Of a stretch of 64,000 nucleotides of DNA, positions 1,381-63,347 are shown one piece after another (within the stretch, counting starts at the first letter, position 1; every line of letters starts with the position of its first letter). The DNA lies in contig NZ_FMZU01000023.1 in NCBI RefSeq assembly GCF_900101545.1, positions 1 to 64,000 of the forward strand. Direction: 5' to 3'. The position numbers and the translations under genes are program-made. The DNA is from Variovorax sp. CF079. GTDB taxonomy: Bacteria > Pseudomonadota > Gammaproteobacteria > Burkholderiales > Burkholderiaceae_C. The notes under the pieces are model-generated. The model was not told the origin of the DNA and searched no databases. It saw only the letters and a program-made list of their open reading frames with translations.

Positions 1381-1394
1381 TTGATGCACGTCAA
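1381..1394. promoter_or_regulatory. FNR-type box
   Basis: TTGATGCACGTCAA matches TTGAT-N4-ATCAA with one mismatch. It lies in the leader of the usp gene starting at 1315 on the minus strand. Confidence 0.6.
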
Positions 1395-1423
1395 CTCAAG
1401 GCCGCGCTCTCGCACGCGCCCGC

Positions 1424-2266
1424 TCAATGCGCAATCAGGATTGGAAAGGTCATATGCGCGAGGATCTGCTGTGTGACGCCGCCGAGCACCATCTCGCGCA
1501 GGCGCGAGTGGCCATAGCCGCCCATCACCATCAGGTCGGCGCCGAGATCGCAGGCCCGCGAAAGCAGCGCGGCGGCGATGTCGATCTCGATCACGTCCTC
1601 CTCAGCCGTCGCCTTGATGCCGTGCCTCTGGAGCCACTGGAGCGTTTCGGCAACAAGCAGTCGCGCCGGCTCATGAGGCTCGCCGAGCCTGCGACAGAAA
1701 ACGAGCTTCACCTGGCGCGCCTTGGCCAGCAGCGGCAACGCAGCGCGCATCGCCACCGCCGACGCGCGGGATCCATCCCACGCGACGAACACGTTCTTCA
1801 CTTTCGGCTCGGCGCTTCCCGCGTAGGGCACGACCAGCACAGGACGACCGGCCTGCAGCATCACGCGCGGCACGAGGCCGTGCGCCGGCGCGTCCGAGCT
1901 CGCCGAGCGATCCTCCTGGCCTAGCACGATCAGGTCGCTCGAGCGACCATGCTGCACGATGGCATCGACTGCCGTCCCATCGGTCAGTCGAATCTCGTGC
2001 GACACGGGAATCGGCCCGGACACCCGGACCTTGAAACTTTCGCTGATCGCCTCCGCGCGCCGGCGCAAATGGTCCGCCGATTCGGCAATGAAGTCGGTGA
2101 CACCCGTTGGGATCGCATCCGCGGGAATGACGCCGTCATACAAACCAGTCGGCACGAGGCCGATCAGGTGGCTGCCGTGCGCCCTGGCGAGCCCGGCCGC
2201 GAACGCGACGCGGGCGGAACACCTGTCCGTGTGGTCCAGGTGAACCAGGATGGTCTTGAAGTCCAT
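1424..2266 (-). CDS. Universal stress protein, tandem-domain type
   Basis: The 280-residue protein holds two Usp modules. The N-terminal half begins MDFKTILVHLDHTDRC and the C-terminal half ends with GGYGHSRLREMVLGG. In this second motif the terminal Ser/Thr of the ATP-type signature is Gly, so nucleotide binding is less certain than in the short USPs here. It is a close paralogue of the protein at 37048-37905, with the same HLDHT and ARAHGSHLIGLVPTGL blocks. Two FNR-like boxes lie in the upstream region (2320-2333 and 2374-2387). Confidence 0.9.
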   Translation of the reverse strand: MDFKTILVHLDHTDRCSARVAFAAGLARAHGSHLIGLVPTGLYDGVIPADAIPTGVTDFIAESADHLRRRAEAISESFKVRVSGPIPVSHEIRLTDGTAVDAIVQHGRSSDLIVLGQEDRSASSDAPAHGLVPRVMLQAGRPVLVVPYAGSAEPKVKNVFVAWDGSRASAVAMRAALPLLAKARQVKLVFCRRLGEPHEPARLLVAETLQWLQRHGIKATAEEDVIEIDIAAALLSRACDLGADLMVMGGYGHSRLREMVLGGVTQQILAHMTFPILIAH

Positions 2267-2319
2267 GGGTCATCCTTTCGAAGATGTTCGCATCCTCGAT
2301 CACTTCTCGCGCACCCACC

Positions 2320-2333
2320 TTGACGGCGATCAA
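2320..2333. promoter_or_regulatory. FNR-type box
   Basis: TTGACGGCGATCAA is a near-perfect TTGAY-N4-RTCAA palindrome. It sits 54-67 bases upstream of the minus-strand tandem USP and could also serve the divergent gene at 2526. Confidence 0.7.
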
Positions 2334-2373
2334 AGCGCAGCGCGCCCGAGTCGACGGCTCGAACACTGGAAGC

Positions 2374-2387
2374 TTGATCCAGCGCAA
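2374..2387. promoter_or_regulatory. FNR-like box (CGCAA variant)
   Basis: TTGATCCAGCGCAA is identical over all 14 bases to the site at 39780-39793 in front of the BON gene. It lies between divergent genes and is the second site in this intergenic region. Confidence 0.5.
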
Positions 2388-2905: not shown

Positions 2906-2919
2906 TTGATCGAGCGCAA
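2906..2919. promoter_or_regulatory. FNR-like box (CGCAA variant)
   Basis: TTGATCGAGCGCAA lies 56-69 bases upstream of the flavodoxin-like gene starting at 2975. Confidence 0.5.
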
Positions 2920-3961: not shown

Positions 3962-3975
3962 TTGATCTGGCGCAA
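3962..3975. promoter_or_regulatory. FNR-like box (CGCAA variant)
   Basis: TTGATCTGGCGCAA lies ~90-104 bases upstream of the usp gene starting at 4066, just after the DUF302 stop codon. Confidence 0.5.
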
Positions 3976-37961: not shown

Positions 37962-37975
37962 TTGACATCGATCAA
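37962..37975. promoter_or_regulatory. FNR-type box between usp and phaC
   Basis: TTGACATCGATCAA is a near-perfect TTGAY-N4-RTCAA palindrome, 57-70 bases upstream of the minus-strand usp and 62-75 bases upstream of phaC. It could control both. Confidence 0.72.
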
Positions 37976-39779: not shown

Positions 39780-39793
39780 TTGATCCAGCGCAA
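39780..39793. promoter_or_regulatory. FNR-like box (CGCAA variant)
   Basis: TTGATCCAGCGCAA, identical to 2374-2387, lies ~103-116 bases upstream of the BON gene. Confidence 0.5.
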
Positions 39794-43442: not shown

Positions 43443-43456
43443 TTGACGGAGGTCAA
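43443..43456. promoter_or_regulatory. FNR-type box
   Basis: TTGACGGAGGTCAA is a perfect inverted repeat (TTGAC/GTCAA) of FNR geometry, 61-74 bases upstream of the DksA-like gene. Confidence 0.55.
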
Positions 43457-44110: not shown

Positions 44111-44273
44111 ACGGTTCTCCAGGACAAGGGTTGCGCCATTCCGTTGCAGCACGGGTACCAGCTCAGGATCGCTCAGCGGTGTTTCGGGCGTTTTGATGTA
44201 GGTCAACAGTGCCGAACATCGCTCGGATGCAGCGAGGACCGCTGCATCCGAGCGGCTGCGACCCGCCGATTGC

Positions 44274-48037: not shown

Positions 48038-48762
48038 AGGGCCGCCGCCGTCATCGGCGCGGCGATGCGCTGGATGAAGCTCGTCAGCGCCTCGACCTGC
48101 GGGATGTGGATGTCGCGCCGGCCCTTCTCGATGAAGCGGATCACGTCGCCACGCGCCAGCCGCGACAGCGCCCGGCTCACCGACTCCAGCGTCATGCCCA
48201 GGTAGTTGCCGATCTCCGCGCGGGTCATGTGAAGGGTGATCTGGTCGGTGCGCAGGCCGCGCTGTGCGAGCGCGTCGGCCCAGTAGCGCAGGAAACCGGC
48301 TACGCGGGCGTCGGCCGGCAAGGTGCACAGTGAGAGCAGCGAATCGTGGTCGCGCACGAGCTCGCGGCTCATCGCCTGGTGCAGCGCGGTCAGCAAGGCG
48401 GGCGTGCGAACCGCCGCCTGCAGCAGCGCGTCATAGCGAACCGCCCAGACCTCGCCGGTGTCCATCGCGACCGCGTCGCAGCCGTACTGGCCCGCCGCGA
48501 TGCCGTCGAGGCCCAGCCAGTCGCCCTTGAAGTGCAGACCGACCACCTGCTCGCGCCCCTCCCCGGAGAGGTTGACCATCTTGAAGAAGCCCGAGTTCAC
48601 GATGTAGAGGCAGCCGAACTGCTGCCCCACCTGGTAGACCGTGTCGCCCGCGCGGACGATGCGCCGCTGGATCGCCACGCTGTCCTGCAGCAGTTGCAGC
48701 ATGTCGGCAATGCGCCGCGCGGCAGTCCGGTGGCCCTGGGTCACGCTTGTCGCTTCAGTCAT
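48031..48762 (-). CDS. Crp/Fnr-family regulator without iron-sulfur cysteines
   Basis: The 243-residue protein has a cyclic-nucleotide-binding-like sensor domain and a Crp-type helix-turn-helix, MTRAEIGNYLGMTLESVSRAL. The E-S-V-S-R recognition helix matches FNR and should read TTGAT half-sites. Unlike the protein at 54924, it lacks the N-terminal Cys cluster, so it is not an FNR-type [4Fe-4S] oxygen sensor; FixK/DNR-like control is more likely. Many TTGAT-type boxes in this window are its possible targets. Confidence 0.9.
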   Translation of the reverse strand: MTEATSVTQGHRTAARRIADMLQLLQDSVAIQRRIVRAGDTVYQVGQQFGCLYIVNSGFFKMVNLSGEGREQVVGLHFKGDWLGLDGIAAGQYGCDAVAMDTGEVWAVRYDALLQAAVRTPALLTALHQAMSRELVRDHDSLLSLCTLPADARVAGFLRYWADALAQRGLRTDQITLHMTRAEIGNYLGMTLESVSRALSRLARGDVIRFIEKGRRDIHIPQVEALTSFIQRIAAPMTAAALH

Positions 48763-48899: not shown

Positions 48900-48913
48900 T
48901 TGATGGCGATCAA
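48900..48913. promoter_or_regulatory. Perfect FNR box
   Basis: TTGATGGCGATCAA is a perfect TTGAT-N4-ATCAA palindrome in front of the carbamoyltransferase-like gene. If the centre is at -41.5, transcription would begin near 48948, almost at the GTG start 48949. Confidence 0.82.
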
Positions 48914-48948: not shown

Positions 48949-49701
48949 GTGGAATCCGCTCTCTCCCTCCCTTCTCACCGCCTGGCGCTGGACAAGCCGC
49001 TGGCCGCGGGAGACATCCTGGCGATCTTCGCGGCCGCCCGGCGCCTGCAGGCGCACGCGCATGCGGGCACGATCGGCAAGCCCTTGCACGGCAAGAACAT
49101 CGCCCTGCTGCTGGGTCGATCGCCCAGCGGGGAAACCTCCGCCCTGCATCGCGCCGCGCTGGAGCTCGGCGCCCGGGTCGCCGAGGTGCCATTCGCCGAA
49201 CCGGCCGGGGTGTCAGGACGCGACGATATCCGCGGCCTGGCGCGGATGCTGAGGCGCATGTACGACGCCATCGACTGCGGCACGCTGGCTGCGGTCACCG
49301 TGCGCCAGATCGAGCAGGAGGCGGCGGGCGTGCCGGTCTACGCAGGATTGGCCCTTGAGGATCATCTGGTGCAGGTGCTGGCGGATCTCATGACGCTCTG
49401 TGACCATCGGCCGCCATCGGCATCGAAGGCCTCGAAGCCTTCGATCCTCTACCTCGGCGACCCGCGAACGAAGCGCGGGCGCGCGTTTCTCGCGGCCGCC
49501 CGGCAGATCGGCTTCGAGGTGCGCCTGGGCCAGCGCCTGCAGGCGGCATCGAACGACGCGACGATTTTCGTGGTCGATGCCACGCACCATCCTCGCTGGG
49601 CGCTGCATTCGCCATCGAGCATGCTCGACGAGGCTAGACGCTCGGAGACGCACCGACGCGTGATGCAGGCGGTGTTGCTGGACACGATAGAGAGAGTCTG
49701 A
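48949..49701 (+). CDS. Degenerate aspartate/ornithine carbamoyltransferase-like protein
   Basis: The 250-residue protein aligns by eye with the first two thirds of ornithine carbamoyltransferases: LHGKNIALLLGRSPSGETSA, LHRAALELGARV, LARMLRRMYDAI, VPVYAGLALEDHLVQVLADLMT and ILYLGDPRTKRG. The carbamoyl-phosphate motif S-T-R-T is replaced by SPSGET, the HPTQ motif by DHLVQ, and the HCLP region is absent. It is therefore probably not a working transferase. GTG 48949 is preferred; GTG 48919 is also in frame. Control by an FNR box recalls anaerobic arc operons. Confidence 0.7.
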   Translation: MESALSLPSHRLALDKPLAAGDILAIFAAARRLQAHAHAGTIGKPLHGKNIALLLGRSPSGETSALHRAALELGARVAEVPFAEPAGVSGRDDIRGLARMLRRMYDAIDCGTLAAVTVRQIEQEAAGVPVYAGLALEDHLVQVLADLMTLCDHRPPSASKASKPSILYLGDPRTKRGRAFLAAARQIGFEVRLGQRLQAASNDATIFVVDATHHPRWALHSPSSMLDEARRSETHRRVMQAVLLDTIERV

Positions 49702-49880
49702 CGCGAAAGTCTCAGGCCGAGCGGCATCCCTTCGGTCTTCGCGCGACCGGCAGCAGACGGTCAGGCGGCGTGCGATGACGGCTGGCCGATACGTGGCAGC
49801 CGCCGCACGCTTCGGCTTGATGTTCGTCAAGGCACAGGCGTGCCTCGCTGCGCATGATCGGCTTTTCGCCGGAGGCCCCC

Positions 49881-52559
49881 TTGACCATTCGCCATCTCGA
49901 CCGCCTGCTGTCTCCGAACTCGGTCGCCGTGTTCGGCGCTTCGAACCGCCAAGGCAGTGTCGGCGCCACCGTCTGGCGCAACCTGCGCGCCGGCCATTTC
50001 ACGGGGCCGATCTATGCCGTCAATCCCAAGCACGCTGTGCTGGGTGGTGCGCCCGTGTTCGCGAAGGCTGCCCATCTGCCCGGCGCACCGGATCTCGCCC
50101 TCCTGTGTACGCCGGCGCACACGGTGGCGCAACTGATCGCCGAACTCGGCGCGCTGGGCACCCGCGCTGCCATCATCGTGACCGCCGGTCTGAGTGCAGC
50201 GCAGAAGCAGACAGCGCTCGATGCGGCAAAGCCCTATCTGATGCGCCTGCTGGGTCCCAATTGCATCGGGCTGCTGAGCCCGCACATCGGGCTGAATGCC
50301 AGCTTCGCCCATACCGACGCGCTGCCGGGGGAGCTGGCCTTCGTGTCGCAGTCCGGCGCGCTGGTCACCGCGGTACTTGACTGGGCCAAGAGCCGCGGCA
50401 TCGGCCTGTCGCACCTCGTGTCCCTCGGCGACCACTGCGACGTCGATTTCGGCGACCTGCTCGACCATCTGGCGAGCGACGCGCGCACGCGATCCATCCT
50501 GCTCTACGTCGAATCGGTGGAGTCGCCGCGCAAGTTCATGTCCGCCGCGCGTGCGGCGGCGCGCAACAAGCCGGTGATCGTCGTGAAGGCCGGGCGCGCC
50601 GGCAACGGCGTGCGCGCCGCCGCCTCGCACACCGGTGCACTGGCGGGTTCGGACGCCGTCTACGACGCCGCCATCCGCCGCGCCGGCATGTTGCGTGTCG
50701 ACACGCTGCAGGACCTGTTCATCGCGGCGGAGACCCTGGCGCGTTTTCGCGGCAACCGCAGTGAATCGCTGACCATCATGACCAACGGCGGCGGCGCCGG
50801 CGTGATGGCAGCGGACGCGGCCGCGCGGGCCGGCATCACGCTCGCCGAGCCGAACGAGGCGCTGCTGGAACGCTTGAATGCGGTGCTGCCAGCCAACTGG
50901 TCGCACGCCAACCCGATCGACATCATCGGCGATGCACCGATCGAGCGCTACACCGCCACGCTGTCGGCCCTGCTGGCCGACGAGTCGGCCGGCGCGGTGC
51001 TGTTCGTCCACGCGCCGACCGCGATCGTTCGCAGCGACGACATCGCGCGCGCCTGCCTGCCCTTGCTGCGCACAACCGGGCCGCGCGTCATGAGCGCCTG
51101 GCTCGGCGACGCCGCCGTCGCCCAGGCGCGCCAGCTGTTCGAACAGGCCGGCATACCCGACTACCCGACGCCGGAGGAAGCCGTTCGCGCCTTCGCGATG
51201 CTGCAAACCTACAGACGCAACCAGGACACCCTGATCGAGGCACCGAGCGCCAGCGAGAACCCGGCGCCCGATGTCGCATCGGCACATCGCCGGCTGGACG
51301 CGGTGCTCGCCGAAGGTCGCGAATGGCTTGGCGAGCAGGAGGCCAAGGCCGTGCTCAAGGCCTATGGCGTGCCGGTGGTGCCAACGCTCGCGGTTCCCGC
51401 CTCGGCCGAGGCCATTTTTTCAGCGGCGCGAGAAGTCGGCTACCCGGTGGCGCTCAAGATCGTCTCGCGCGACATCACGCACAAATCCGACGTCGGCGGC
51501 GTCCGGCTCGACCTGCGCGACCAGGCATCGCTGGACCATGCGGTCAGCGAGATGCTGCACGCCGTGCGGACCGCCCGGCCCGATGCGCGCATCGACGGGT
51601 TCACTGTGCAGCCGATGGTGCGTCGGCCTCATGCCCAGGAAGTCATTGTCGGGGCCAGCATCGACAGCGTGTTCGGCCCGGTCATTCTTTGCGGCCAGGG
51701 TGGCACCGCGGTGGAGGTCAGCGCCGACAGTGCCGTCGCCCTGCCCCCTCTCAACCGCAGCCTGGCGCGCGAACTGGTCTCGCGCACGCGCGTGTCGCGC
51801 CTGCTGGCCGGCTACCGCGACCATCCGCCGGCCCGGATGGACGCGCTCTACGACGTGCTGATCGCCGTGTCGCAGATGCTCGCCGACCTGCCGCAGTTGG
51901 CGGAACTCGACATCAATCCGCTGTATGTCGACGAATCGGGCGCTGTCGCTCTCGATGCCCGCATTCGCGTCGCCGCGCGGCCGGTCGCCGGGGCGGAGCG
52001 CTTTGCGATCCTTCCGTATCCTTCGCAATGGGTCCGCACCCTGGCCTGGAACGGCCGCGAGATCACGCTGCGACCGATCCGCCCCGAGGACGAGGCGCAG
52101 CACCGGCGCTTTCTGGAGCAACTCGACCCGGAAGACATCCGCATGCGAATCTTCCAGACAAGGCGTGAGCTGCCGCGCAGCGAACTCGCCCGCCTCACCC
52201 AGATCGACTACGACCGTGAGATGGCCTTCATTGCCGAAGGCTCCGACGCGCAGGGGGCGCCCGAGACGCTGGGCGTGGCCCGTACCGTGAGCGATCCCGA
52301 CCGGGTGGAGGCCGAGTTCGCCATCATCGTGCGCTCCGATCTCAAGGGCGCCGGGCTCGGCAAGCTGCTGTTCGCGCAAATGATCGAGCACGCCAGGAGC
52401 CGCGAAATCGGCCGTCTCGTGGGCATCATCCTGCGCGAGAACACGCGGATGCTGAACCTGGCGCGCGCCATGGGCTTCGAGGCCGATCCGGCGGAACCGC
52501 CCGATTCGGGCGTGCGGCGCGTGGTCAAGACATTGAACAGTCCGATCATCACCCCTTGA
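49881..52559 (+). CDS. ADP-forming acyl-CoA synthetase/GNAT fusion (Pat-like protein acetyltransferase)
   Basis: The 892-residue protein combines a CoA-binding/ligase part (SVAVFGASNRQGSVGATVW, GPNCIGLLSP), an ATP-grasp domain (EVIVGASIDSVFGPVILCGQGG) and a C-terminal GNAT domain (~715-880: ITLRPIRPEDEAQHRRFL, GAGLGKLLFAQMIEHAR). This is the layout and length of Pat/YfiQ, which acetylates Acs. The site ASHTGALAGS keeps the phosphohistidine position of active ADP-forming enzymes. TTG 49881 is chosen because GGAGG lies just upstream; ATG 49854 is an alternative without a ribosome site. Confidence 0.88.
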   Translation: MTIRHLDRLLSPNSVAVFGASNRQGSVGATVWRNLRAGHFTGPIYAVNPKHAVLGGAPVFAKAAHLPGAPDLALLCTPAHTVAQLIAELGALGTRAAIIVTAGLSAAQKQTALDAAKPYLMRLLGPNCIGLLSPHIGLNASFAHTDALPGELAFVSQSGALVTAVLDWAKSRGIGLSHLVSLGDHCDVDFGDLLDHLASDARTRSILLYVESVESPRKFMSAARAAARNKPVIVVKAGRAGNGVRAAASHTGALAGSDAVYDAAIRRAGMLRVDTLQDLFIAAETLARFRGNRSESLTIMTNGGGAGVMAADAAARAGITLAEPNEALLERLNAVLPANWSHANPIDIIGDAPIERYTATLSALLADESAGAVLFVHAPTAIVRSDDIARACLPLLRTTGPRVMSAWLGDAAVAQARQLFEQAGIPDYPTPEEAVRAFAMLQTYRRNQDTLIEAPSASENPAPDVASAHRRLDAVLAEGREWLGEQEAKAVLKAYGVPVVPTLAVPASAEAIFSAAREVGYPVALKIVSRDITHKSDVGGVRLDLRDQASLDHAVSEMLHAVRTARPDARIDGFTVQPMVRRPHAQEVIVGASIDSVFGPVILCGQGGTAVEVSADSAVALPPLNRSLARELVSRTRVSRLLAGYRDHPPARMDALYDVLIAVSQMLADLPQLAELDINPLYVDESGAVALDARIRVAARPVAGAERFAILPYPSQWVRTLAWNGREITLRPIRPEDEAQHRRFLEQLDPEDIRMRIFQTRRELPRSELARLTQIDYDREMAFIAEGSDAQGAPETLGVARTVSDPDRVEAEFAIIVRSDLKGAGLGKLLFAQMIEHARSREIGRLVGIILRENTRMLNLARAMGFEADPAEPPDSGVRRVVKTLNSPIITP

Positions 52560-52569
52560 TCCTTCGCAA
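52556..52569. promoter_or_regulatory. FNR-like box (CGCAA variant)
   Basis: TTGATCCTTCGCAA overlaps the stop codon of the Pat-like gene. It lies 60-73 bases upstream of the DUF2892 gene. Confidence 0.45.
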
Positions 52570-54858: not shown

Positions 54859-54872
54859 TTGATGTGCATCAA
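54859..54872. promoter_or_regulatory. Perfect FNR box between tauE-like gene and fnr
   Basis: TTGATGTGCATCAA is a perfect TTGAT-N4-ATCAA palindrome, 52-65 bases upstream of the fnr start codon. It suggests autoregulation and control of the divergent gene. Confidence 0.83.
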
Positions 54873-54923: not shown

Positions 54924-55640
54924 ATGAAAGCCGAACACATCAAGGTCGCCTGCTCCAGTTGCACCCTGCGCGAGCTGTGCATGCCCGCGGGGCTGGAGCC
55001 GAGCGAGTTGAAACGCATCGACGAGATCGTGGCCACGCGGCGCAAGGTCCGACGTCGCGAGACGCTCTTTCGCAACGGCGAGCCCTTCACCTCGCTCTAT
55101 GCGATCCGCACCGGCGTCTTCAAGACCCGCGTGGCGACCGAGGATGGGCGCGACCAGGTCACCGGTTTCCAGATGGCCGGCGAAATCATCGGCCTCGATG
55201 GCATCGTCAACAACCAGCACACCTGCGACGCGGTGGCGCTCGAGGATGCCGAGGTCTGCGTGATGCCCTTTCACCGCATCGAGGAACTGTCGCGCGAGGT
55301 CGCGGCGCTGCAGCGCCACGTGCACCAGATCATGAGCCGCGAGATCGTGCGCGAACACGGGGTGATGCTGCTCCTGGGGAGCATGCGGGCCGAGGAACGC
55401 CTCGCGGCGTTCCTGCTCAATCTCGTGCAGCGCCTGCATGCGCGCGGCTTCTCGCGTTCCGAGTTCGTGCTGCGCATGACGCGCGAGGAGATCGGCAGCT
55501 ACCTCGGGCTCACCCTCGAAACGGTGAGCCGGACGCTCTCCAAGTTCATGGAGGATGGCATCGTCGAGGTGGAGAAGCGCAACCTTCGCATCGTCGACGC
55601 AGAGGCGCTCCGGCGCATCGTCAATCCTCCGGGTTGTTGA
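54924..55640 (+). CDS. fnr: Oxygen-sensing regulator FNR
   Basis: From ATG 54924 the protein has 238 residues. C10, C13, C19 (ACSSCTLRELC) and C112 (EVCVMPF) reproduce the E. coli FNR spacing of 3, 6 and 93, so a [4Fe-4S] oxygen-sensing cluster is predicted. The helix-turn-helix EEIGSYLGLTLETVSRTLSKF carries the E-S/T-V-S-R residues reading TTGAT. It stands beside the cbb3 genes, and perfect FNR boxes occur at 48900, 54859, 60822 and 63334. The 3' end overlaps the convergent small gene by 20 bases. Confidence 0.96.
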   Translation: MKAEHIKVACSSCTLRELCMPAGLEPSELKRIDEIVATRRKVRRRETLFRNGEPFTSLYAIRTGVFKTRVATEDGRDQVTGFQMAGEIIGLDGIVNNQHTCDAVALEDAEVCVMPFHRIEELSREVAALQRHVHQIMSREIVREHGVMLLLGSMRAEERLAAFLLNLVQRLHARGFSRSEFVLRMTREEIGSYLGLTLETVSRTLSKFMEDGIVEVEKRNLRIVDAEALRRIVNPPGC

Positions 55641-55872
55641 TCTCGGAGGCCGGCCTGGTCAGAAGCAGCGTCAACGCGCTCGACCCTATCGCCAGCAGCC
55701 AGAAGGCGAAGAAGCCGGCCGCATAGACCGCCTGGCGCGACAGGCCGACGGCCTCGCCGCGCCAGTGGAGGTCGCCGGGGTCGACCAGCGCAAACACCAG
55801 CAGTTCGGCCGCGCTCGCCAGCAGAAAGGCGGGCCAGAGAATCGACATCCAGTTGCGCGTCTTCATGGCCAT
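55621..55872 (-). CDS. Small membrane protein at the end of the cco operon
   Basis: The 83-residue protein has two hydrophobic helices, ILWPAFLLASAAELLVFALV and AVYAAGFFAFWLLAIGSSAL. Its start overlaps the stop of the FixH/CcoH gene, so it is the last gene of the cco operon. Short two-span proteins in this position are common in Burkholderiales cbb3 clusters, but the function is unknown. The stop lies inside the 3' end of fnr. Confidence 0.75.
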   Translation of the reverse strand: MAMKTRNWMSILWPAFLLASAAELLVFALVDPGDLHWRGEAVGLSRQAVYAAGFFAFWLLAIGSSALTLLLTRPASEINNPED

Positions 55873-56147
55873 CAGCGCTTGGGTGCGGGCAAGTCGGCAT
55901 CAGGCGTTGCCGCATGATTGCGGCCCGCCAGCGCGGGCATCAGCTTCTTTTCGACCAGTTGCTTGTTGATCTCGAGGCCCTGGCGGTAGTAGTCCGGCGC
56001 CACCACCGGATCGGGCGTGCGCAGGGCGAGCCAGAGCGTCACGAAGCTGGCGACGATGACCACGGCGGGCCCGGCCATCACCATCCACAGCAGCGGGAAC
56101 TGCCACCAGGGTTCGCACTTCGGGGAAGTCATCGCATGATCGTCCAT
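55872..56147 (-). CDS. ccoH: FixH/CcoH family cbb3 oxidase assembly protein
   Basis: The 91-residue protein begins MDDHAMTSPKCEPWWQFPLL, with one membrane span (MVMAGPAVVIVASFVTLWLA). It carries the FixH signature DPVVAPDYYRQGLEIN. GAGGAGA precedes ATG 56147. It assists assembly of the cbb3 oxidase. It lies between ccoG and the small membrane protein. Confidence 0.9.
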   Translation of the reverse strand: MDDHAMTSPKCEPWWQFPLLWMVMAGPAVVIVASFVTLWLALRTPDPVVAPDYYRQGLEINKQLVEKKLMPALAGRNHAATPDADLPAPKR

Positions 56148-56167
56148 CTTGTCTCCTCTTTGCCAAC

Positions 56168-57607
56168 TCAACGAGGCACCAGGAAGGTCGCCTTCTCCGA
56201 CACCTGCGCGCTGCCGTCGGCCGAGCGCACGTCGAAGTGCACGACGTGGGAACCCGCGGTGGCGCTGCCGTAGGGGAGCTGCAGGCGCACCGCGACCCAG
56301 CGCGACTGCGCAGAACCGACCTCGACCGGATCAGGCGGCGACACGCTCAAGCCTTCCAGCCCCCTGGCTTCGATGCGGTAGCGCTGCACCTGCTCGGTCG
56401 CGTTCATGATCTGCAGGCGATAGACGTTCTCGAGTTGGCCGCCATCGACGATGCGCGCGAGCGAAGCCCGGTCGCGCACCACGTCGACCTTCAGCGGCGT
56501 GCGCACGACCAGGCTCGCCAGCACACCCATCGTCAGCGCAGCGAGCAAGCCCGTGTAGATCAGCACCCGTGGGCGCTGCACGCGGCGCAGCACCTGCCTC
56601 GGCGTCCAATGGCCGGCCATGCCGTTCTGTGTCGCGTAGCGGATCAGACCTCGCGGCGTGGCCATCCTGTCCATCACGGTGTTGCAGGCGTCCACACAGA
56701 GCCCGCAGCCGATGCATTCGTACTGCAGCCCCTTGCGGATATCGATTCCGGTCGGGCAGACCTGCACGCACAACGAACAGTCGATGCAGTCGCCAAGTCC
56801 CTGAGCGCGGGCATTGCTGCTCTTGGAACGCACTCCGCGGGGTTCGCCACGCTCGCTGTCGTAGCTCACGATCAGCGTGTCGCGATCGAACATGGCGCTC
56901 TGGAAGCGCGCATAGGGACACATGTACATGCAGACCTGCTCGCGCATGAAACCCGCATTGCCGTAGGTCGCAAAGCCGTAGAAGAAGACCCAGAACACCT
57001 CCCACGAACTCATGCGCGTTTGCAGGAATTCCAGGCCCAGCTCGCGGATCGGCGTGAAGTAGCCGACGAAGGTAAAGCCGGTCCACAGCGCGATGCCGAG
57101 CCACACGATGTGCTTGAACCACTTCTTGACCAGTTTCTCGAGCGAGAAATCGCCCTCGTCCAGGCGCATGCGCGCGATGCGGTTGCCTTCGATCTTGTGC
57201 TCGACCCACAGAAAGATCTCGGTGTAGACGGTTTGCGGACAGGCATAGCCGCACCACAACCGCCCCGCCACCGCGGTGAAGAGGAACAGCGACAGCGCCG
57301 AGATCACCAGCAGGCCCGTCAGGTAGATCAGATCCTGCGGGTACAGCACGAGGCCGAGGATGTAGAAGCGCCGCGCGCCCAGGTCGAACAGCACCGCTTG
57401 GCGCTGCCCCCACTCGAGCCAGGGCAGGCCATAGAACACGAGCTGCGTCAGGAACACCATCGCCCAGCGCCAGCGCGCGAAGACGCCGCGCACCGTGCGG
57501 GGATAGACCTTCTGGTGCGCGGCGAACAGGCCGCCGCCAGACTGGGCGGCGGCGATCGGGATCACTCGACGCCTCACCGGGGTCGACGCGGAAGCGGCAT
57601 CCTTCAT
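56168..57607 (-). CDS. ccoG: Cytochrome c oxidase accessory protein CcoG
   Basis: The 479-residue polyferredoxin-like membrane protein has N-terminal spans, WCGYACPQTVYTEIFLWVEH, and two [4Fe-4S] motifs, CIDCSLCVQVCPTGIDIR and CIGCGLCVDACNTVMD. A periplasmic-type FixG C-terminal Ig-like domain follows. CcoG reduces Cu(II) during cbb3 biogenesis in Rhodobacter. It lies 9 bases after ccoP. Confidence 0.95.
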   Translation of the reverse strand: MKDAASASTPVRRRVIPIAAAQSGGGLFAAHQKVYPRTVRGVFARWRWAMVFLTQLVFYGLPWLEWGQRQAVLFDLGARRFYILGLVLYPQDLIYLTGLLVISALSLFLFTAVAGRLWCGYACPQTVYTEIFLWVEHKIEGNRIARMRLDEGDFSLEKLVKKWFKHIVWLGIALWTGFTFVGYFTPIRELGLEFLQTRMSSWEVFWVFFYGFATYGNAGFMREQVCMYMCPYARFQSAMFDRDTLIVSYDSERGEPRGVRSKSSNARAQGLGDCIDCSLCVQVCPTGIDIRKGLQYECIGCGLCVDACNTVMDRMATPRGLIRYATQNGMAGHWTPRQVLRRVQRPRVLIYTGLLAALTMGVLASLVVRTPLKVDVVRDRASLARIVDGGQLENVYRLQIMNATEQVQRYRIEARGLEGLSVSPPDPVEVGSAQSRWVAVRLQLPYGSATAGSHVVHFDVRSADGSAQVSEKATFLVPR

Positions 57608-57616
57608 GACGGATCC

Positions 57617-58531
57617 CTAGGGCGCAGCGGCAGGCTTGCTCGACAAGCCCCAGACATAGGAGGCCAGCACATGGATCTGGGCCTCGGTCAGTCGGCCCTG
57701 CTGCCCCGGCATCTGATTTGTCCTGCCGGTGTTGATGATCGAGATGATCGCCTCCTGCCCGTAGCCGTGCAGCCAGACCTTGTCGGCCAGGTTGGGCGCA
57801 CCCATCGCCGGGTTGCCGACACCGCCGATGCCGTGGCAGGCCGCGCAGGCGCTGAACTTGCTCTTACCCAGGCCGGCGCGGACCGAATCGTGCGGGCTGC
57901 CCGACAGGCTCAGCACATAGTTGGCGACGTTCTTGACGTCCTCGGGGGTGCCGACCGCCGCGGCCATCGGCGGCATCACGCCGGTGCGCCCCCGGGTGAT
58001 CGATTCCTTGATCTTCTCGGGTGCGCCGCCGTGCAACCAGTCGCGATCGGCCAGGTTCGGAAAGCCCTTGCTGCCGCGTGCGTCCGAGCCGTGGCACTGC
58101 GCGCAGTTGTTGAGGAACAGACGCTCGCCGATCGCCGTCGCCGCGGGTTCGCCCGCCACGCGCTCGATCGGCATGGCCGCATAGGCGGCGTAGACGGGTT
58201 CGAGATCACGCTTGGCCTTGGCAAGGTCCTTCGCATACTCGTTCTCGGTACTCCATGCGAGCTGGCCCTGGTAACTGCCGAGCCCCGGATACGCGACCAG
58301 GTAGGCCACGCCGAAGATGATGGTGAGCACGAAGAGGCCGATCCACCAGCGCGGCATCGGATTGTTGGCTTCGCGCAGGTCTTCGTCCCAGACATGTCCG
58401 GTCGTTTCATCGGTCCCGCCCGGAACCTTCGCGCGGGCAACGAGCCACAGCAGCAATGCGCACAGCAGGATGCTGCCCAGCGAGGCAATGGCGACATAGT
58501 TCGACCAGAAGTCACTGAAGAAATCGCTCAT
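57617..58531 (-). CDS. ccoP: cbb3 oxidase subunit III, dihaem cytochrome CcoP
   Basis: The 304-residue protein has an N-terminal span (NYVAIASLGSILLCALLLWLV) plus a second (WIGLFVLTIIFGVAYLVAYP) and two haem motifs, CAQCHGSDARGSKGFPNL and CAACHGIGGVGNPAMGAPNL. It passes electrons from soluble cytochrome c to CcoO and CcoN. Confidence 0.96.
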   Translation of the reverse strand: MSDFFSDFWSNYVAIASLGSILLCALLLWLVARAKVPGGTDETTGHVWDEDLREANNPMPRWWIGLFVLTIIFGVAYLVAYPGLGSYQGQLAWSTENEYAKDLAKAKRDLEPVYAAYAAMPIERVAGEPAATAIGERLFLNNCAQCHGSDARGSKGFPNLADRDWLHGGAPEKIKESITRGRTGVMPPMAAAVGTPEDVKNVANYVLSLSGSPHDSVRAGLGKSKFSACAACHGIGGVGNPAMGAPNLADKVWLHGYGQEAIISIINTGRTNQMPGQQGRLTEAQIHVLASYVWGLSSKPAAAP

Positions 58532-58540
58532 GTTGCTCTC

Positions 58541-58678
58541 TCAGTCCTGTTCGAACGGCAATTGGGCTGCACCCTCGAAAGCCTTCGCGTTGCGGCGCGA
58601 GTAGGCCCATACGAGGATGCCGATGAAGGTGGCGAAGGAAATCAAGGTGGCGACGATCCGCAAGGTGGTGATGTCCAT
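58541..58678 (-). CDS. ccoQ: cbb3 oxidase subunit IV CcoQ
   Basis: A 45-residue single-span protein begins MDITTLRIVATLISFATFIG and continues LVWAYSRRNAKAFEGAAQLP, the CcoQ pattern. It lies between ccoO and ccoP with ~10-base gaps. The start was placed at ATG 58678, which has GGAG upstream. Confidence 0.92.
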   Translation of the reverse strand: MDITTLRIVATLISFATFIGILVWAYSRRNAKAFEGAAQLPFEQD

Positions 58679-58688
58679 GGCGTGCTCC

Positions 58689-59315
58689 TTACTTGATCGC
58701 GAGCCCGAGCGACTGGAGATAGGCCACCAGCGCATCCATCTCGGTCTTCCCTTTCACCTCGGCCGCCGCGGCGGCGACCTGCTCATCGGTGAAAGGCACG
58801 CCGACGCGGCGCAGGGCACGCATGTGCGTCGCAGCCTCGGCTCCGTCGAGCGGCGCCTTCTCGAGCCAGGCGTAGCCCGGCATGTTCGATTCGGGCACCA
58901 CATCGCGCGGGTTGTTCAGGTGGATGCGGTGCCACTCATCGCTGTACTTGCCGCCGACGCGCTGCAGATCAGGGCCGGTGCGCTTGCTGCCCCACTGAAA
59001 CGGGTGGTCGTAGACGAACTCGCCGGCGACCGAGTAGTGGCCGTAGCGCAGCGTCTCGGCACGGAAGGGCCGGATCATCTGCGAGTGGCAGTTGTAGCAG
59101 CCCTCGCGCACGTAGACGTCGCGGCCCAGCACCTGCAGCGAACTCGGCGGCTGCATGCCCGCCACGGCCTGCGTGGTCGATTTCTGGAAGAAAAGCGGCA
59201 CGATCTCGACCAGGCCGCCGACGGCGACGACCAGCAGGATCAGCACGATCATCAGGAAGTTGTTGGTCTCGATCTTCTCGTGCGAGAAGCCGGTCTTGGG
59301 AGGGTTCGAGCTCAT
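58689..59315 (-). CDS. ccoO: cbb3 oxidase subunit II, monohaem cytochrome CcoO
   Basis: The 208-residue protein has one N-terminal span ([20 protein letters not shown]), the haem motif [18 protein letters not shown] and the Met-ligand region [10 protein letters not shown]. It lies 11 bases after ccoN. The ATG at 59315 was chosen because the family N-terminus begins there, although the frame is open further upstream. Confidence 0.95.
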
Positions 59316-59326
59316 GCTTTTCTTTC

Positions 59327-60766
59327 TCAGGCGTGGGCGGCTGCCGGCAGCGGAATGGATGCGCGCACCGAGCGTCCCGAGATGACGGTCATGACGACGT
59401 TCCATGCCATGACCAGCATCCCGCCCAGGTAGAGCAGACCGCCGATCAGGCGCACCACGTAGTAGGGATAGGTGGCCTTCACGCTCTCCACGAAGGTGTA
59501 GGTGAGCGTGCCGTCCGGGTTGATGGAGCGCCACATCAGGCCCTGCATGACGCCGGCGATCCACATGGCGGCGATGTAGAGCACGATGCCGATGGTGGAC
59601 ATCCAGAAATGCAGCTCGATCGCCTTGACGCTGTGCATCTCGCTACGGCTGTACATCCTCGGGATCAGGTAGTAAAGCGAGCCCATCGAGATCAGTCCCA
59701 CCCAGCCGAGCGCGCCGGCATGCACGTGGCCGACGGTCCAGTCGGTGTAGTGGGAGAGCGCGTTGACCGTCTTGATCGACATCATCGGCCCCTCGAAGGT
59801 CGCCATGCCGTAGAACGAGAGCGCCACGATCAGGAAGCGCAGGATCGGGTCGGTGCGCAGCTTGTGCCAGGCGCCCGAGAGGGTCATGACGCCGTTGATC
59901 ATTCCGCCCCAGCTCGGCGCCAGCAGGATCAGCGAGAACACCATGCCGATCGACTGGGTCCAGTCGGGCAGCGCCGTGTAGTGCAGGTGGTGCGGCCCTG
60001 CCCACATGTAGGTGAAGATCAGCGCCCAGAAGTGCACGATCGAGAGCCGGTACGAATACACCGGCCGGCCGGCCTGCTTGGGGATGTAGTAGTACATCAT
60101 CCCGAGGAAGCCGGCCGTGAGGAAGAAGCCGACCGCGTTGTGGCCGTACCACCACTGCACCATCGCGTCCTGCACGCCGGCGTAGGCCGAGTAGCTCTTC
60201 ATCAAGCCGGCGGGGATCGCCACGCTGTTGACGATGTGCAGCAGGGCGACCGCGATGATGAAGGCGCCATAGAACCAGTTGGCCACGTAGATGTGCCGGA
60301 CCTTGCGCGTGCCGATGGTTCCAAAGAACACGACCGCATAGGCCACCCAGACCAGGGCGATCAGGATGTCGATTGGCCATTCGAGCTCCGCATATTCCTT
60401 GCCGCTCGTGTAGCCCATCGGCAGGCTGATGGCGGCAGCCACGATCACGGCCTGCCAGCCCCAGAAGACGAAGGACGCGAGCGCCGGCGCGAACAGGCGT
60501 ACCTGGCAGGTGCGCTGCACCACGTGAAAGCTGGTGGCCATCAGCGCGCAGCCGCCGAAGGCGAAGATCACCGCGTTGGTGTGCAGCGGCCGCAGCCGGC
60601 CGTAGCTGAGCCAGGGAATGCCGAGGTTGAGCTCGGGCCAGGCCAGCTGCGAGGCGATGATGACGCCGACGAGCATGCCGACCACCCCCCACACGACCGA
60701 CATCAGGGCGAGTTGCCGCACGACGGTGTCGCTGTAGACCGCTGCGGGAGGATTGGATACTTGCAT
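59327..60766 (-). CDS. ccoN: cbb3 oxidase catalytic subunit CcoN
   Basis: The 479-residue, 12-span haem-copper oxidase contains [40 protein letters not shown] and the copper/haem histidines in [14 protein letters not shown]-like and [18 protein letters not shown]. It reduces oxygen with high affinity at the inner membrane. ATG 60766 is preceded by a perfect FNR box (60822-60835), so expression should rise at low oxygen. Confidence 0.97.
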
Positions 60767-60821
60767 CTTCTGGCCTTCTCGTGGATTGCGGTCAGTGTCC
60801 CGGCGCGACATGCGAGACGGT

Positions 60822-60835
60822 TTGATGCAGATCAA
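60822..60835. promoter_or_regulatory. Perfect FNR box of the ccoNOQP operon
   Basis: TTGATGCAGATCAA is a perfect TTGAT-N4-ATCAA palindrome, 56-69 bases upstream of ccoN. It overlaps the stop codon of ccoS. Confidence 0.87.
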
Positions 60836-60969
60836 TCGTTGCGCAGAATGCGCTCGCCCTCGCCTTCGACGTCGTCGAATTGGCCACGCTCGACGGCCCA
60901 CCAGAGTCCGCCCAGGATCACCAGCACGAGCACGACCGAGAAGGGGATCAGGAGAAACAGGATGTCCAT
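60832..60969 (-). CDS. ccoS: cbb3 oxidase maturation protein CcoS
   Basis: This 45-residue gene is easily missed. It begins [20 protein letters not shown] and continues [20 protein letters not shown], a single span followed by the WxVxxGQFDDLEGP-type tail diagnostic for CcoS. Its ATG overlaps the ccoI stop (TGATG), so the two are translationally coupled. CcoS is needed for cofactor insertion into the oxidase. Its stop lies inside the FNR box of ccoN. Confidence 0.93.
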
Positions 60970-63299
60970 CAGCGCCCTTCCTCAACGGGCCTGGCCAGGC
61001 GCGCCGCATTGAGCACCACGAGCAGCGAACTCGCCGCCATCCCGAGCCCGGCGAGCCAGGCCGGCAGCCAGCCTGCGACGGCCAGCGGCACGCACAGCGC
61101 GTTGTAGCCGGCGGCCCACCAGAGGTTCTGCCGCACCACCCGCAGCGTGCGGCGTGCCTGCGCGACCGCTTGCGCAATGACGGCAAGCGAACCGCCCAGC
61201 ACGACGAAGTCGGCTCGCGCCTGGGCCAGCGGAATGGCGTTGCCAAAGGCGAAAGAGACATGCGCGTGCGCCAGGATGGGGCCGTCATTGAGGCCATCGC
61301 CGACCATCGCGACGCGCCGACCGCTCGCTTGGAGCGCCTGCAGGACGCGCAGCTTCTCCTCGGGCGCACAGTCGCCACTGGCTTGCTCGATGCCGGCGCG
61401 GGCGGCGACCTCGCGCGCGGCTGCGTCGCGGTCGCCGGAGAGAAGCTGCACCGACACGCCCTGCCCTTGCAGCGCAGCCACCGCGACGCCCGCATCGGGG
61501 CGAAGATCCTCGGCCAGCACGAAGCTCGCCAGCCAGCCCTGCGCATCGCTCAGATGCACCTGCACCGCCTCGACCTCCAGCGGGGGAACCCCGCAAAAGG
61601 CTGCCGAGCCGAGGCGCACGCAACGCGCGGTGTCGTCCATCGCCGCTTTTCGGCGAACACGTGCTTCGACTCCGAGCCCACCGTACTCCGTCAGTTGAAG
61701 GATCTCCCACGCCGGCGCGGTGCGGAACTGGGCACTCCACGCCGTGACAAGGGCACGGCCTGCGGGATGCAGCGACTGCGCGGCGATCGCCGCGGCGAGT
61801 TCCACCGCGTCGCCCGGGCGCAGGCCTTGCCGGCAATAGGCGCGCTCGAGTCGGGGCACATCGCGCGTGAGCGTGCCGGTCTTGTCGAAGACCACGGTGT
61901 CGACCGAGGCGAGCGCCTCGAGCGCCTGCAGATTGCGCACCACGACGCCACGACGGGCCAGGAAGCCCGCACTCGCGAGCATCGCCGCCGGCGTGGCGAG
62001 CGACAACGCGCAGGGGCAGGTCACGATCAGCACCGCCACCGCGACCATCAACGCCCTGCCCGAATCGACCGGCCACCAGAACGCTGCGGCAAGGACGGCG
62101 GCAGTCAGAACCGCCACCAGGAAGGGCCGCGCCGCGCGATCCGCGAGCCGAGCGAGCCGCGGCTTCTGCAGCGAGGCGCTCTCCATCAGCGCCATGATCT
62201 GCGCGAAGCGCGTGTTCTGGCCCAGCGATTCGACCTGCATCTGCACCGCCGACGACAGGTTGTGACTGCCGGCCAAGACGCGCGTGCCGCAGGGACGCGG
62301 CACCGGGCGCGATTCGCCTGTCAACAAGGCCTCATCCGCCGTGGTGTCGCCGGCCGTCAGGATGCCGTCCGCCGGAAAAGCCTCGCCCGGCAGCACGCGC
62401 ACGATGTCTCCAAGCGCAAGCCGGCGCACGGCCACGCGAGTGAATATTCCGTCGGCGCCGAGCCGCTCGATGCTGTCGGGCAGCCGGTTCATCAAGGCTT
62501 CGAGCGCGCCCGCCGTGCGGTCGCGCAGGCGCGTCTCGAGCCAGCGGCCGGTGAGCAGGAAGAACACGAACATCGTGAGGGAGTCGAAGTACACCTCGCC
62601 GCCCAGCGGGCCAGAGGCATCGAAGGTGGCCGCCGTGCTGACAACAAAGGTGATTGCGATGCCGAGCGCAACAGGCAGGTCCATGCCGATGCGCTTTCGG
62701 CGCAGATCAAGAAGCGCGCTGCGAAAGAACGGGCCGCACGAGAAAAGGATCACTGGCAGGGTGAGCACCCAGGAGGCCCAGCGCAGCAGCTGCGCGGCAT
62801 CGGGCGTCATGTCTCCGGGCTCGGCGATGTACGCTGGGTAGGCATACATCATCACCTGCATCATGCAGAAGCCCGCGACCAGCCAGCGCCAGAGCGCGAG
62901 CCGCGCCTCGCGCGCACGCCGTGCACGCACGAACATGTCGCCGGCCGGCACGAGCCGGTAGCCGGCGGCCGAGCAGGCCGCGAACCAGCGCGAAGGCTTG
63001 ACGGCCGCGGCCGACCACACAATACGGGCGCGCTGGGTTGCGGCATTGACTTCCGCCTTCTCGACGCCCGGCACCTGTGCCAGCGCCGCCTCGACCGTGA
63101 AGGCGCAGGCTGCACAATGCATGCCCTCGACCACAACCTGCGATTCCCAGCGGCCCGCCGCAGGCTGGTCGTCGAGCGAACGCCCGAATGCCGGCCACTC
63201 GGTCGCATCGTCCAGCAGCGAGCAGTCCGCCTGTGCCGCGAGATCGGCGGACATGGGGTCGTGGCGGGCGGGCGGGCTGGACGCAGCTGCGGCTTGCAT
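60969..63299 (-). CDS. ccoI: Copper-translocating P1B-ATPase for cbb3 assembly (CcoI)
   Basis: The 776-residue P-type ATPase has an N-terminal heavy-metal domain with [12 protein letters not shown], eight membrane spans with the CPC motif [11 protein letters not shown], the phosphorylation site DKTGTLTRD and the hinge [10 protein letters not shown]. Coupling to ccoS and neighbourhood of ccoN identify it as CcoI/FixI, which exports copper for the oxidase. An FNR box lies 35-48 bases upstream of the start. Confidence 0.95.
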
Positions 63300-63333
63300 T
63301 GTGCAAGGCTATTGGCACGCATGCAGGGCGGCC

Positions 63334-63347
63334 TTGATCTGCATCAA
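63334..63347. promoter_or_regulatory. Perfect FNR box between ccoI and usp
   Basis: TTGATCTGCATCAA is a perfect TTGAT-N4-ATCAA palindrome, 35-48 bases upstream of ccoI (minus) and 59-72 bases upstream of the usp (plus). Confidence 0.85.

What the first reader, a model, noticed from the sequence alone, without database searches (positions are those of the whole stretch)
1381..63347. Dense FNR-type regulon spread over the whole window
I read about 17 TTG-N8-CAA palindromes in intergenic positions: four perfect TTGAT-N4-ATCAA (48900, 54859, 60822, 63334), several one-mismatch sites, and TTGAT-N4-CGCAA or TTGCG variants. They precede USPs, phaC, BON/phaB, the DksA-like gene, the carbamoyltransferase-like gene, ccoN, ccoI and fnr. 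Functionally unrelated genes therefore appear to be gathered into one low-oxygen persistence island. FNR binding to such sites is established; membership of the CGCAA variants is inference.
Basis: partly seen in the sequence, partly recalled or inferred. Interest (0 to 1): 0.72.

Follow-up and report, generated by a model that had tools for sequence, protein, structure and literature searches.

The report
Variovorax low-oxygen gene island
A bacterium of the genus Variovorax appears to keep many of its low-oxygen survival genes side by side, most of them with the same kind of on-switch for oxygen-responsive regulators, much like a gene island already known from Burkholderia.

Summary
The sites are real and concentrated: the window holds 4 of the genome's 9 perfect TTGATN4ATCAA sites, 11 of 61 TTGAN6TCAA and 5 of 19 TTGATN4CGCAA. 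A matrix from relatives' sites finds 17 intergenic sites here and none in the intergenic DNA of ten control stretches (threshold 10). They sit like promoter parts: in this genome's two clusters 5 of 6 CGCAA and 21 of 24 symmetric site-gene pairs have a -10-like hexamer 21-22 nt downstream, against 6.6% of random upstream positions. In relatives, 69 of 89 orthologous genes have such a site upstream, against 50 of 419 other genes. The CGCAA variants fit: the identical 14-mer is listed as a putative FixK2 box of a FixK2-dependent gene. Across 25 Variovorax genomes they seem to go with a cysteine-less FNR paralogue (48031-48762) more than with the Fe-S Fnr (54924-55640). Corrections: the sites cluster at 1.4-4 kb and 37-64.7 kb; a second cluster with nitrate-respiration-like genes lies on contig C48. 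Gene content resembles the Burkholderia lxa locus: a new member of a known kind. Expression and binding are untested.

The parts
1381..1394 (-). symmetric-type site TTGACGTGCATCAA before USP 686-1315
   Evidence: 79 nt to start, -10 GAAACT at 22
2320..2333 (-). symmetric-type site before tandem USP 1424-2266
   Evidence: 67 nt to start, -10 GAGGAT at 22; site kept in 3 of 4 orthologues
2374..2387 (+). TTGATCCAGCGCAA, directional site
   Evidence: -10 GAATAT at 22; ORF from 2466 or 2526 to 2861; no Pfam match for the longer frame 2265-2861
2906..2919 (+). TTGATCGAGCGCAA, directional site before flavodoxin-like gene 2975-3589
   Evidence: -10 GATACT at 22; ORF start; weak Flavodoxin_5 below the cut-off, run on 2972-3589
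3962..3975 (+). TTGATCTGGCGCAA, directional site before USP 4066-4521
   Evidence: 104 nt to start, -10 AAGAAT at 22; Usp Pfam; site kept in 3 of 4 orthologues
37962..37975 (.). site between divergent tandem USP (37048-37905) and phaC (start 37926 or, more likely, 38037)
   Evidence: -10 on both strands; same site in G014, similar in G005; phaC keeps a site in 6 of 8
39780..39793 (+). TTGATCCAGCGCAA before BON (39896-40549) and phaB (40552-41271)
   Evidence: -10 TAAAGT at 22; identical 14-mer at the same place in G005 and G014; BON keeps a site in 10 of 12
43443..43456 (+). site before DksA-like gene 43517-43891
   Evidence: -10 GACGAT at 22; zf-dskA_traR; kept in only 2 of 8 orthologues
44193..44206 (.). 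site before small ORF 43895-44110 (-) and tandem USP 44340-45173 (+)
   Evidence: -10 GATCCT on the - strand, none on the + strand; USP keeps a site in 1 of 3
45258..48037 (+). OmpR-type response regulator and PAS-GAF-HisKA-HATPase-REC hybrid kinase
   Evidence: Pfam, NCBIfam; kinase beside the paralogue in 11 of 15 loci
48031..48762 (-). cysteine-less FNR paralogue
   Evidence: NCBIfam Fnr 125 bits under the cut-off of 228; no N-terminal Cys triad in any of 15 sequences aligned
48900..48913 (.). perfect site between the paralogue and the carbamoyltransferase-like gene
   Evidence: TTGACGGCGATCAA in the C48 copy, G014 and L030, its reverse complement in G005; on the paralogue side no -10 at 21-22
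48949..49701 (+). degenerate carbamoyltransferase-like protein
   Evidence: OTCace_N only; carbamoyl-phosphate loop altered
49817..49830 (+). site before acyl-CoA ligase/acetyltransferase 49854-52559
   Evidence: -10 CATGAT at 22; same site in G005 and G014; kept in 4 of 5
52556..52569 (+). TTGATCCTTCGCAA before YgaP-like membrane gene 52629-52844
   Evidence: -10 CACGAT at 22; Pfam; kept in 2 of 5
54859..54872 (.). perfect site before fnr
   Evidence: -10 on both strands; kept in G005, G008 and G014, 3 of 3
54924..55640 (+). Fe-S type Fnr
   Evidence: NCBIfam Fnr 237 bits above 228; Cys 10, 13, 19, 101
55621..60766 (-). ccoN-ccoO-ccoQ-ccoP-ccoG and two small downstream genes
   Evidence: Pfam for ccoG and ccoP; the rest by similarity to the annotated V. 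paradoxus genes
60822..60835 (-). perfect site before ccoN, overlapping the end of ccoS
   Evidence: 69 nt to start, -10 GACACT at 22; kept in 7 of 7
60832..63254 (-). ccoI-like P-type ATPase and ccoS
   Evidence: NCBIfam heavy-metal ATPase; order as in V. paradoxus VAI-C
63334..63347 (.). perfect site between ccoI and USP 63406-63849
   Evidence: -10 on both strands; Usp Pfam; kept in 5 of 6 (ccoI) and 5 of 5 (USP)

Best explanation
This is a Variovorax member of the lxa-type low-oxygen island. When oxygen falls, the Fe-S Fnr (54924-55640) becomes active and, with a cysteine-less FNR paralogue (48031-48762), binds sites centred near -41.5 and recruits RNA polymerase (class II activation). Symmetric TTGAY-N4-RTCAA sites drive the cbb3 oxidase, its ATPase, fnr itself, the carbamoyltransferase-like gene, several USPs, phaC and an acyl-CoA ligase. 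Directional TTGAT-N4-CGCAA sites drive part of the persistence set (BON-phaB, a USP, a flavodoxin-like and a YgaP-like gene) and depend mainly on the cysteine-less paralogue. Shown here: site density, position, promoter geometry, conservation, and co-occurrence with the regulators. Inferred: binding, oxygen response, and the split between regulators.
For: Density against the genome and against control intergenic DNA. -10 hexamer at 21-22 nt for 5 of 6 CGCAA and 21 of 24 symmetric site-gene pairs in this genome's clusters, repeated in three sets of relatives (CGCAA 23 of 28, 20 of 24, 5 of 7; symmetric 43 of 59, 29 of 40, 4 of 8), random upstream positions 5.6-6.6%. Orthologues of the window's target genes have a site within 250 nt upstream in 69 of 89 cases, against 50 of 419 genes of the same loci without a match in this island and 0 of 193 genes of the control stretches. 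Regulator classes and site counts in 25 genomes: GCGCAA-type means 14.8 (both regulators, n=11), 8.0 (paralogue only, n=8), 5.5 (Fnr only, n=2), 4.2 (neither, n=4); paralogue-only above the six genomes without the paralogue, p=0.006. In the two Fnr-only genomes the fnr-cco regions (40 kb each) hold symmetric sites and no CGCAA; in paralogue-only G009, G013 and G019, 8 of 10, 11 of 16 and 5 of 7 GCGCAA-type sites lie in the fetched 60-100 kb. Published precedents.
Against: No expression or binding data. The recognition helices of the two regulators share the E..SR contacts, so sequence gives no reason for different preferences. The genome comparison ignores relatedness, has only two Fnr-only genomes, and two paralogue-only genomes (G010, G017) are only 89% complete; genomes with Fnr also carry more CGCAA sites than those without (p=0.001). 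Paralogue-only genomes keep perfect sites at cco and exceed the 'neither' genomes for symmetric sites too (p=0.014), so the paralogue would have to read both types. CGCAA sites scored in the reversed orientation also exceed background in some sets (1 of 3, 8 of 18, 4 of 17, 4 of 5). In the smaller or other fetched regions few GCGCAA-type sites fall: G138 1 of 4, G004 0 of 7, G016 1 of 6, G024 1 of 8, G005 2 of 22, G014 1 of 21 (G014 lists ten more on an unfetched contig, C70). DksA-like, YgaP-like and USP 44340 orthologues mostly lack a site (2 of 8, 2 of 5, 1 of 3).
Confidence: 0.83

Rival explanations
1. The Fe-S Fnr reads both site types and the cysteine-less paralogue is a minor or unrelated regulator.
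For: Same E..SR contacts in both proteins; genomes with Fnr carry more CGCAA sites than those without (p=0.001).
Against: Eight genomes have the paralogue without a match to the Fe-S Fnr; in three of the six examined (G009, G013, G019) most GCGCAA-type sites lie in the island, and the six together show the -10 spacing (20 of 24). Two Fnr-only genomes have low CGCAA counts and none in the fnr-cco region.
Confidence: 0.15
2. The two regulators act as heterodimers on the asymmetric sites, as proposed for Fnr3-Fnr1 in Herbaspirillum seropedicae.
For: Hybrid half-sites and Fnr1-Fnr3 interaction in H. seropedicae, with USP genes among the co-regulated group; CGCAA counts are highest where both regulators are present.
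Against: Asymmetric sites with -10 spacing exist in genomes with the paralogue alone.
Confidence: 0.2
3. The cysteine-less paralogue is a DNR-like nitric oxide sensor, so part of the island answers to NO rather than oxygen.
For: No Fe-S cysteine triad; the second copy lies on C48 within tens of kb of nar- and nor-like genes (named by eye).
Against: Closest profiles and structures are FNR, then FixK; the DNR structure is not among its matches at E 0.001, while it is for Fnr.
Confidence: 0.12
4. The CGCAA sites belong to an unrelated regulator and merely share the neighbourhood.
For: The proximal half differs from the FNR consensus, and the sites have a preferred orientation (25 one-sided against 3).
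Against: The identical 14-mer is listed as a putative FixK2 box; same -41.5 geometry as the symmetric sites.
Confidence: 0.06
5. Chance or base composition.
For: CGCAA-type matches occur in every one of 150 family genomes.
Against: Shuffles, control stretches and genome-wide counts.
Confidence: 0.01

Closest known systems
Burkholderia cenocepacia lxa (low-oxygen-activated) locus
   Same: A gathered set of USPs, a BON protein, phbB and zinc alcohol dehydrogenase. A B. stagnalis stretch with USP, BON and Fnr relatives also has FNR-type sites, 14 of 15 with a -10 on one strand.
   Different: Here the cbb3 oxidase, fnr, a cysteine-less paralogue and CGCAA sites are part of it. Low-oxygen induction and the persistence phenotype are reported for Burkholderia, untested here.
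FixK2 regulon of Bradyrhizobium diazoefficiens
   Same: Box TTGA/C-N6-T/GCAA; identical TTGATCCAGCGCAA listed before blr1289; FixK2-dependent genes include a USP, phaC2, hemN2, phosphoketolase and oleate hydratase.
   Different: The paralogue here scores closer to FNR than to FixK, and its neighbour is an OmpR-type regulator, not FixJ.
Herbaspirillum seropedicae Fnr1/Fnr3 network
   Same: Several FNR proteins sharing fixNOP, phaC1, a dksA-phaC2 operon and USP promoters, with hybrid sites.
   Different: That paper treats its Fnr dimers as needing an Fe-S cluster; here one protein is cysteine-less. I saw no statement there that the targets form one island (passages and one section read).
Pseudomonas/Burkholderia Anr (FNR) class II regulation
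   Same: TTGATN4ATCAA sites near -41.5 (recalled; an Anr box in B. cenocepacia is mentioned).
   Different: Adds the directional CGCAA class.

Membership tests
FNR-type regulon, class II promoters | TTGATN4ATCAA-like sites enriched in promoters | tested here: met
FNR-type regulon, class II promoters | site centred near -41.5, -10 at fixed spacing | tested here: met
   transcription starts not mapped
FNR-type regulon, class II promoters | oxygen-dependent expression through the regulator | not testable with these tools
   needs RNA-seq or reporters
Fe-S FNR protein (54924-55640) | N-terminal cysteines plus E..SR helix | tested here: met
   motif meaning recalled
Fe-S FNR protein (48031-48762) | N-terminal cysteine triad | tested here: not met
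   absent in 15 of 15 sequences aligned, 2 of them from this genome; NCBIfam cut-off not reached
FixK/FixLJ system | box TTGA/C-N6-T/GCAA | tested here: met
FixK/FixLJ system | regulator in the FixK family | tested here: not met
   Caulobacter-type FixK profile 66 bits against a cut-off of 300, below FNR 125 bits; no tree made
FixK/FixLJ system | adjacent FixLJ pair | tested here: not met
   neighbour is OmpR-type with a PAS-GAF hybrid kinase; FixLJ elsewhere in the genome not searched
lxa-type low-oxygen island | clustered USP, BON, PHB and alcohol dehydrogenase genes | tested here: met
lxa-type low-oxygen island | induction at low oxygen and need for anoxic persistence | not testable with these tools
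   reported for Burkholderia
Herbaspirillum Group III hybrid sites | two FNR proteins bind one asymmetric site | not testable with these tools
   needs ChIP or EMSA

The most novel reading that the evidence does not exclude
In part of Variovorax a cysteine-less protein of FNR descent is the only FNR-type regulator of the island (8 of 25 genomes have it without a match to the Fe-S Fnr). It reads both symmetric sites and a directional TTGAT-N4-CGCAA class II site. Oxygen sensing has passed to another protein, most likely the PAS-GAF hybrid kinase and OmpR-type regulator whose kinase sits beside it in 11 of 15 loci.
Probability: 0.35. Interest if true: 0.65.

Novelty: new member of a known kind. 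Interest (0 to 1): 0.45.

Why it matters
It puts the genus Variovorax on the list of bacteria that gather low-oxygen survival genes in one place. It also gives a natural experiment: related genomes with Fnr, with the cysteine-less paralogue, with both or with neither. That makes testable which regulator reads which box and how a regulator without an Fe-S cluster can be tied to oxygen.

Tried and rejected
The tool's built-in control (pattern read backwards) is a poor baseline for CGCAA: 150 of 150 family genomes have matches, and these usually outnumber the backward pattern, so clustering and geometry were used instead. A clean split 'Fnr reads ATCAA, paralogue reads CGCAA' was considered and rejected, because paralogue-only genomes keep perfect sites at cco. 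FixLJ-FixK was considered and rejected for the neighbour pair. Joining contigs C48 and C45: no overlap; C45 begins in a transposase-like remnant and C48 ends in a USP-like remnant (named by eye); in G008 and G005 genes of both contigs share one neighbourhood. Adjacency stays unproven. The single genome-contig scan returned one named locus. My first gene caller put several genes on the wrong strand; it was retrained on genes chosen by Pfam matches and by eye. One paper search gave no papers; a search for cysteine-less FNR paralogues listed 8 of 114 papers, none opened. Limits: gene calls are home-made, the -10 matrix uses recalled E. coli frequencies, and the site matrix comes from relatives whose sites are homologous to the window's. 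In one search symmetric sites between divergent genes count once per gene.
Full report
What was checked. The window is contig C45:1-64000 of a 6.85 Mb, 71-contig genome. The genus is Variovorax: relative G013, placed in the same genus, has a contig of exactly the length of the V. paradoxus VAI-C record CP063167.1, with the paralogue match at the same place.

Density. The genome has 9 perfect TTGATN4ATCAA sites, 4 of them here; 61 TTGAN6TCAA, 11 here; 171 sites within one mismatch, 12 here; 19 TTGATN4CGCAA, 5 here. Outside contigs C45 and C48 the rates are 206-, 31- and 57-fold lower for the perfect, TTGAN6TCAA and CGCAA types. With a matrix made from relatives' sites, at threshold 10, the window has 25 hits, 17 of them in 8.5 kb of intergenic DNA; ten control stretches (200 kb) have 16 hits, none in their 12.6 kb of intergenic DNA (1 at threshold 8); C48:60-121 kb has 11 intergenic hits in 10.0 kb.

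Where they are. The hits fall at 1.4-4 kb (five) and 37-63.4 kb (eight), plus two at gene ends (52556, 60822). The middle of the window holds acetate-type transport and activation, a large sensor kinase, an aldehyde dehydrogenase, and PQQ-dependent alcohol oxidation with genes that look like pqq (pqq by eye). It has four weaker cases (18227, 21232, 25017, 36875): two lack a -10, one has a -10 but no gene within 350 nt, one has a modest -10, with a similar site near the orthologues in G008. So 'over the whole window' is too wide, and the cluster also continues to C45:64.7 kb.

Promoter geometry. Scored with an E. coli -10 matrix (frequencies recalled), sites with a gene start 20-300 nt downstream have a -10-like hexamer 21-22 nt after the 14-mer in 5 of 6 CGCAA and 21 of 24 symmetric site-gene pairs of this genome's two clusters, against 6.6% of random upstream positions. 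With the -10 starting at -12, an offset of 22 puts the site centre at -41.5. All five CGCAA sites inside the window have it when scored on the + strand (hexamer scores 4.6, 5.4, 4.3, 8.1, 1.5). The pattern repeats in three sets of relatives: CGCAA 23 of 28, 20 of 24, 5 of 7; symmetric 43 of 59, 29 of 40, 4 of 8; the second set is six genomes without an Fe-S Fnr match. Of 75 CGCAA sites in all these loci, 25 have a gene only on the CGCAA side, 3 only on the TTGAT side, 41 both and 6 neither. The reversed-orientation control is not clean: 1 of 3, 8 of 18, 4 of 17 and 4 of 5 also have a hexamer. Two genes that my callers missed or mis-started turned up behind such sites: 2975-3589, and an ORF ending at 2861.

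Conservation. Counted over the 14 fetched relative loci, 69 of 89 orthologues of the window's target genes (at least 55% identity) have an FNR-type site within 250 nt upstream; so do 50 of 419 genes of those loci with no match in this island, 68 of 261 with another match, and 0 of 193 genes of this genome's control stretches. Best kept: ccoN 7 of 7, cysteine-less regulator 12 of 13 (both copies' matches), BON 10 of 12. Poorly kept: DksA-like 2 of 8, YgaP-like 2 of 5, USP 44340 1 of 3. In G005 and G014 TTGATCCAGCGCAA stands before BON-phaB at the same place. Modules are rearranged between genomes but sites mostly stay with genes.

Regulators. 54924-55640 is an Fe-S type Fnr: it passes the NCBIfam Fnr cut-off (237 against 228 bits) and has the cysteines. 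48031-48762 is of FNR descent (125 bits to Fnr, 66 to FixK; best structural relatives FNR, then FixK2) but lacks the N-terminal cysteine triad, as do all 15 sequences aligned: two of this genome and 13 others, among them 6 of the 8 paralogue-only genomes; single N-terminal cysteines occur in some. The second copy, 88% identical, lies on C48 with its own carbamoyltransferase-like partner. Among 25 genomes of the genus 11 have both regulators (Fnr at least 84%, paralogue at least 66% identical), 8 the paralogue only, 2 Fnr only, 4 neither; the two Fnr-only genomes also have more distant relatives (36% and 34%). G012 (62% complete) was left out and G138 added. Mean TTGATN3GCGCAA counts are 14.8, 8.0, 5.5 and 4.2; TTGAYN4RTCAA counts 29.5, 15.2, 21.0 and 10.5. 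Paralogue-only genomes exceed the six genomes without it for CGCAA (p=0.006) but not for symmetric sites (p=0.21); against the four 'neither' genomes they exceed for both (p=0.008 and 0.014). Genomes with Fnr exceed those without for CGCAA too (p=0.001). The two Fnr-only genomes have cco, fnr and hemN with symmetric sites and no CGCAA in 40 kb, one GGCAA variant in G023. In the fetched regions of paralogue-only genomes lie 8 of 10 (G009), 11 of 16 (G013), 5 of 7 (G019), 1 of 4 (G138), 0 of 7 (G004) and 1 of 6 (G016) of the genome's sites; the last three regions are only 20-40 kb. Where the cco operon was fetched in such genomes (G009, G013, G138, G004) it keeps perfect sites. Reading: symmetric sites can be served by either protein; CGCAA sites go with the paralogue. 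Relatedness was not corrected for.

Oxygen sensing without Fe-S. The hybrid kinase (PAS, GAF, HisKA, HATPase, receiver) lies beside the paralogue in 11 of 15 loci, in 10 of these with the OmpR-type regulator; the exceptions are the C48 copy (a fragment only), G008 (absent), G019 (about 10 kb away) and G004 (none in the fetched 20 kb). It is a candidate sensor, not shown to be one.

Comparison with what is known. Papers seen: PMC6127331 (passages and section 7), PMC5934665 (passages and section 17), PMC9104804 (passages, including parts of Table 2), PMC9104464, PMC4603805 and PMC11742914 (passages). The lxa locus holds six USPs, a BON protein, phbB, a zinc alcohol dehydrogenase and more; it is absent from strain H111. 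FixK2's box is TTGA/C-N6-T/GCAA. The table lists putative boxes of FixK2-dependent genes, among them the identical TTGATCCAGCGCAA before an oleate hydratase (down 23-fold in the fixK2 mutant); hemN2 and bsr7087, with CGCAA half-sites, are said there to be validated by in vitro transcription. V. paradoxus VAI-C carries an oleate hydratase and a phosphoketolase in this island, with CGCAA-type sites near the oleate hydratase. H. seropedicae Fnr1 and Fnr3 control fixNOP, phaC1, dksA-phaC2 and USPs, some through hybrid sites. Of 170 plasmid-collection records with a BON relative I fetched five: one is V. paradoxus, and in the four others (B. stagnalis, S. meliloti pSymA, C. oxalaticus, P. caribensis) 14 of 15, 8 of 8, 10 of 11 and 16 of 17 sites have a -10 on one strand or the other, against 13-18% of random positions; CGCAA sites number 2, 3, 2 and 0. 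So the arrangement is wider than Variovorax. Two full-text searches naming Variovorax and FNR showed no paper whose title or opening abstract describes this island (10 of 27 listed; 3 of 3); only the listings were read.

Verdict. A real, dense, well-positioned set of FNR-type promoters in a likely low-oxygen island: a new member of a known kind. The less expected part is the cysteine-less paralogue and its tie to the directional CGCAA sites. Function is inferred throughout; nothing here measures binding or expression.

Noticed in passing
window 48949-49701; C48:67364-68092: Carbamoyltransferase-like protein with only an N-terminal domain match; the carbamoyl-phosphate loop (STRTR in true enzymes, recalled) reads SPSGETS, so it is probably not an enzyme. 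A relative stands divergent to the cysteine-less regulator in 14 of 15 loci and is annotated ornithine carbamoyltransferase in V. paradoxus VAI-C.
   Followed up: partly
contig C48:60-121 kb of the same genome (L016-L019): Second dense site cluster with genes that look like narGHJI, narK, narXL, hemN, norB and nsrR (named mostly from sequence by eye), USPs and a second regulator/carbamoyltransferase-like pair; possibly adjacent to the window.
   Followed up: partly
window 1-261: Contig starts in what looks like an IS630-type transposase remnant, probably the cause of the contig break (family recalled).
   Followed up: no
L072, S. meliloti pSymA 608967-649614: Forty-kb stretch with relatives of the response regulator, kinase, acyl-CoA ligase, USPs and BON of this window, an FNR-like gene and FNR/FixK-type sites, 8 of 8 with a -10 on one strand, in an alphaproteobacterium.
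   Followed up: partly
G008:C1:3.01-3.09 Mb and 3.68-3.76 Mb (L035-L042): Island split into two loci about 0.67 Mb apart, one with nar-like, PQQ and cco genes, the other with USP, BON and PHA genes and many CGCAA sites, each with a carbamoyltransferase-like gene.
   Followed up: partly
G014:C70:3-39 kb: Ten TTGATN3GCGCAA sites listed within 36 kb of a contig that was not fetched: probably another part of that genome's island.
   Followed up: no
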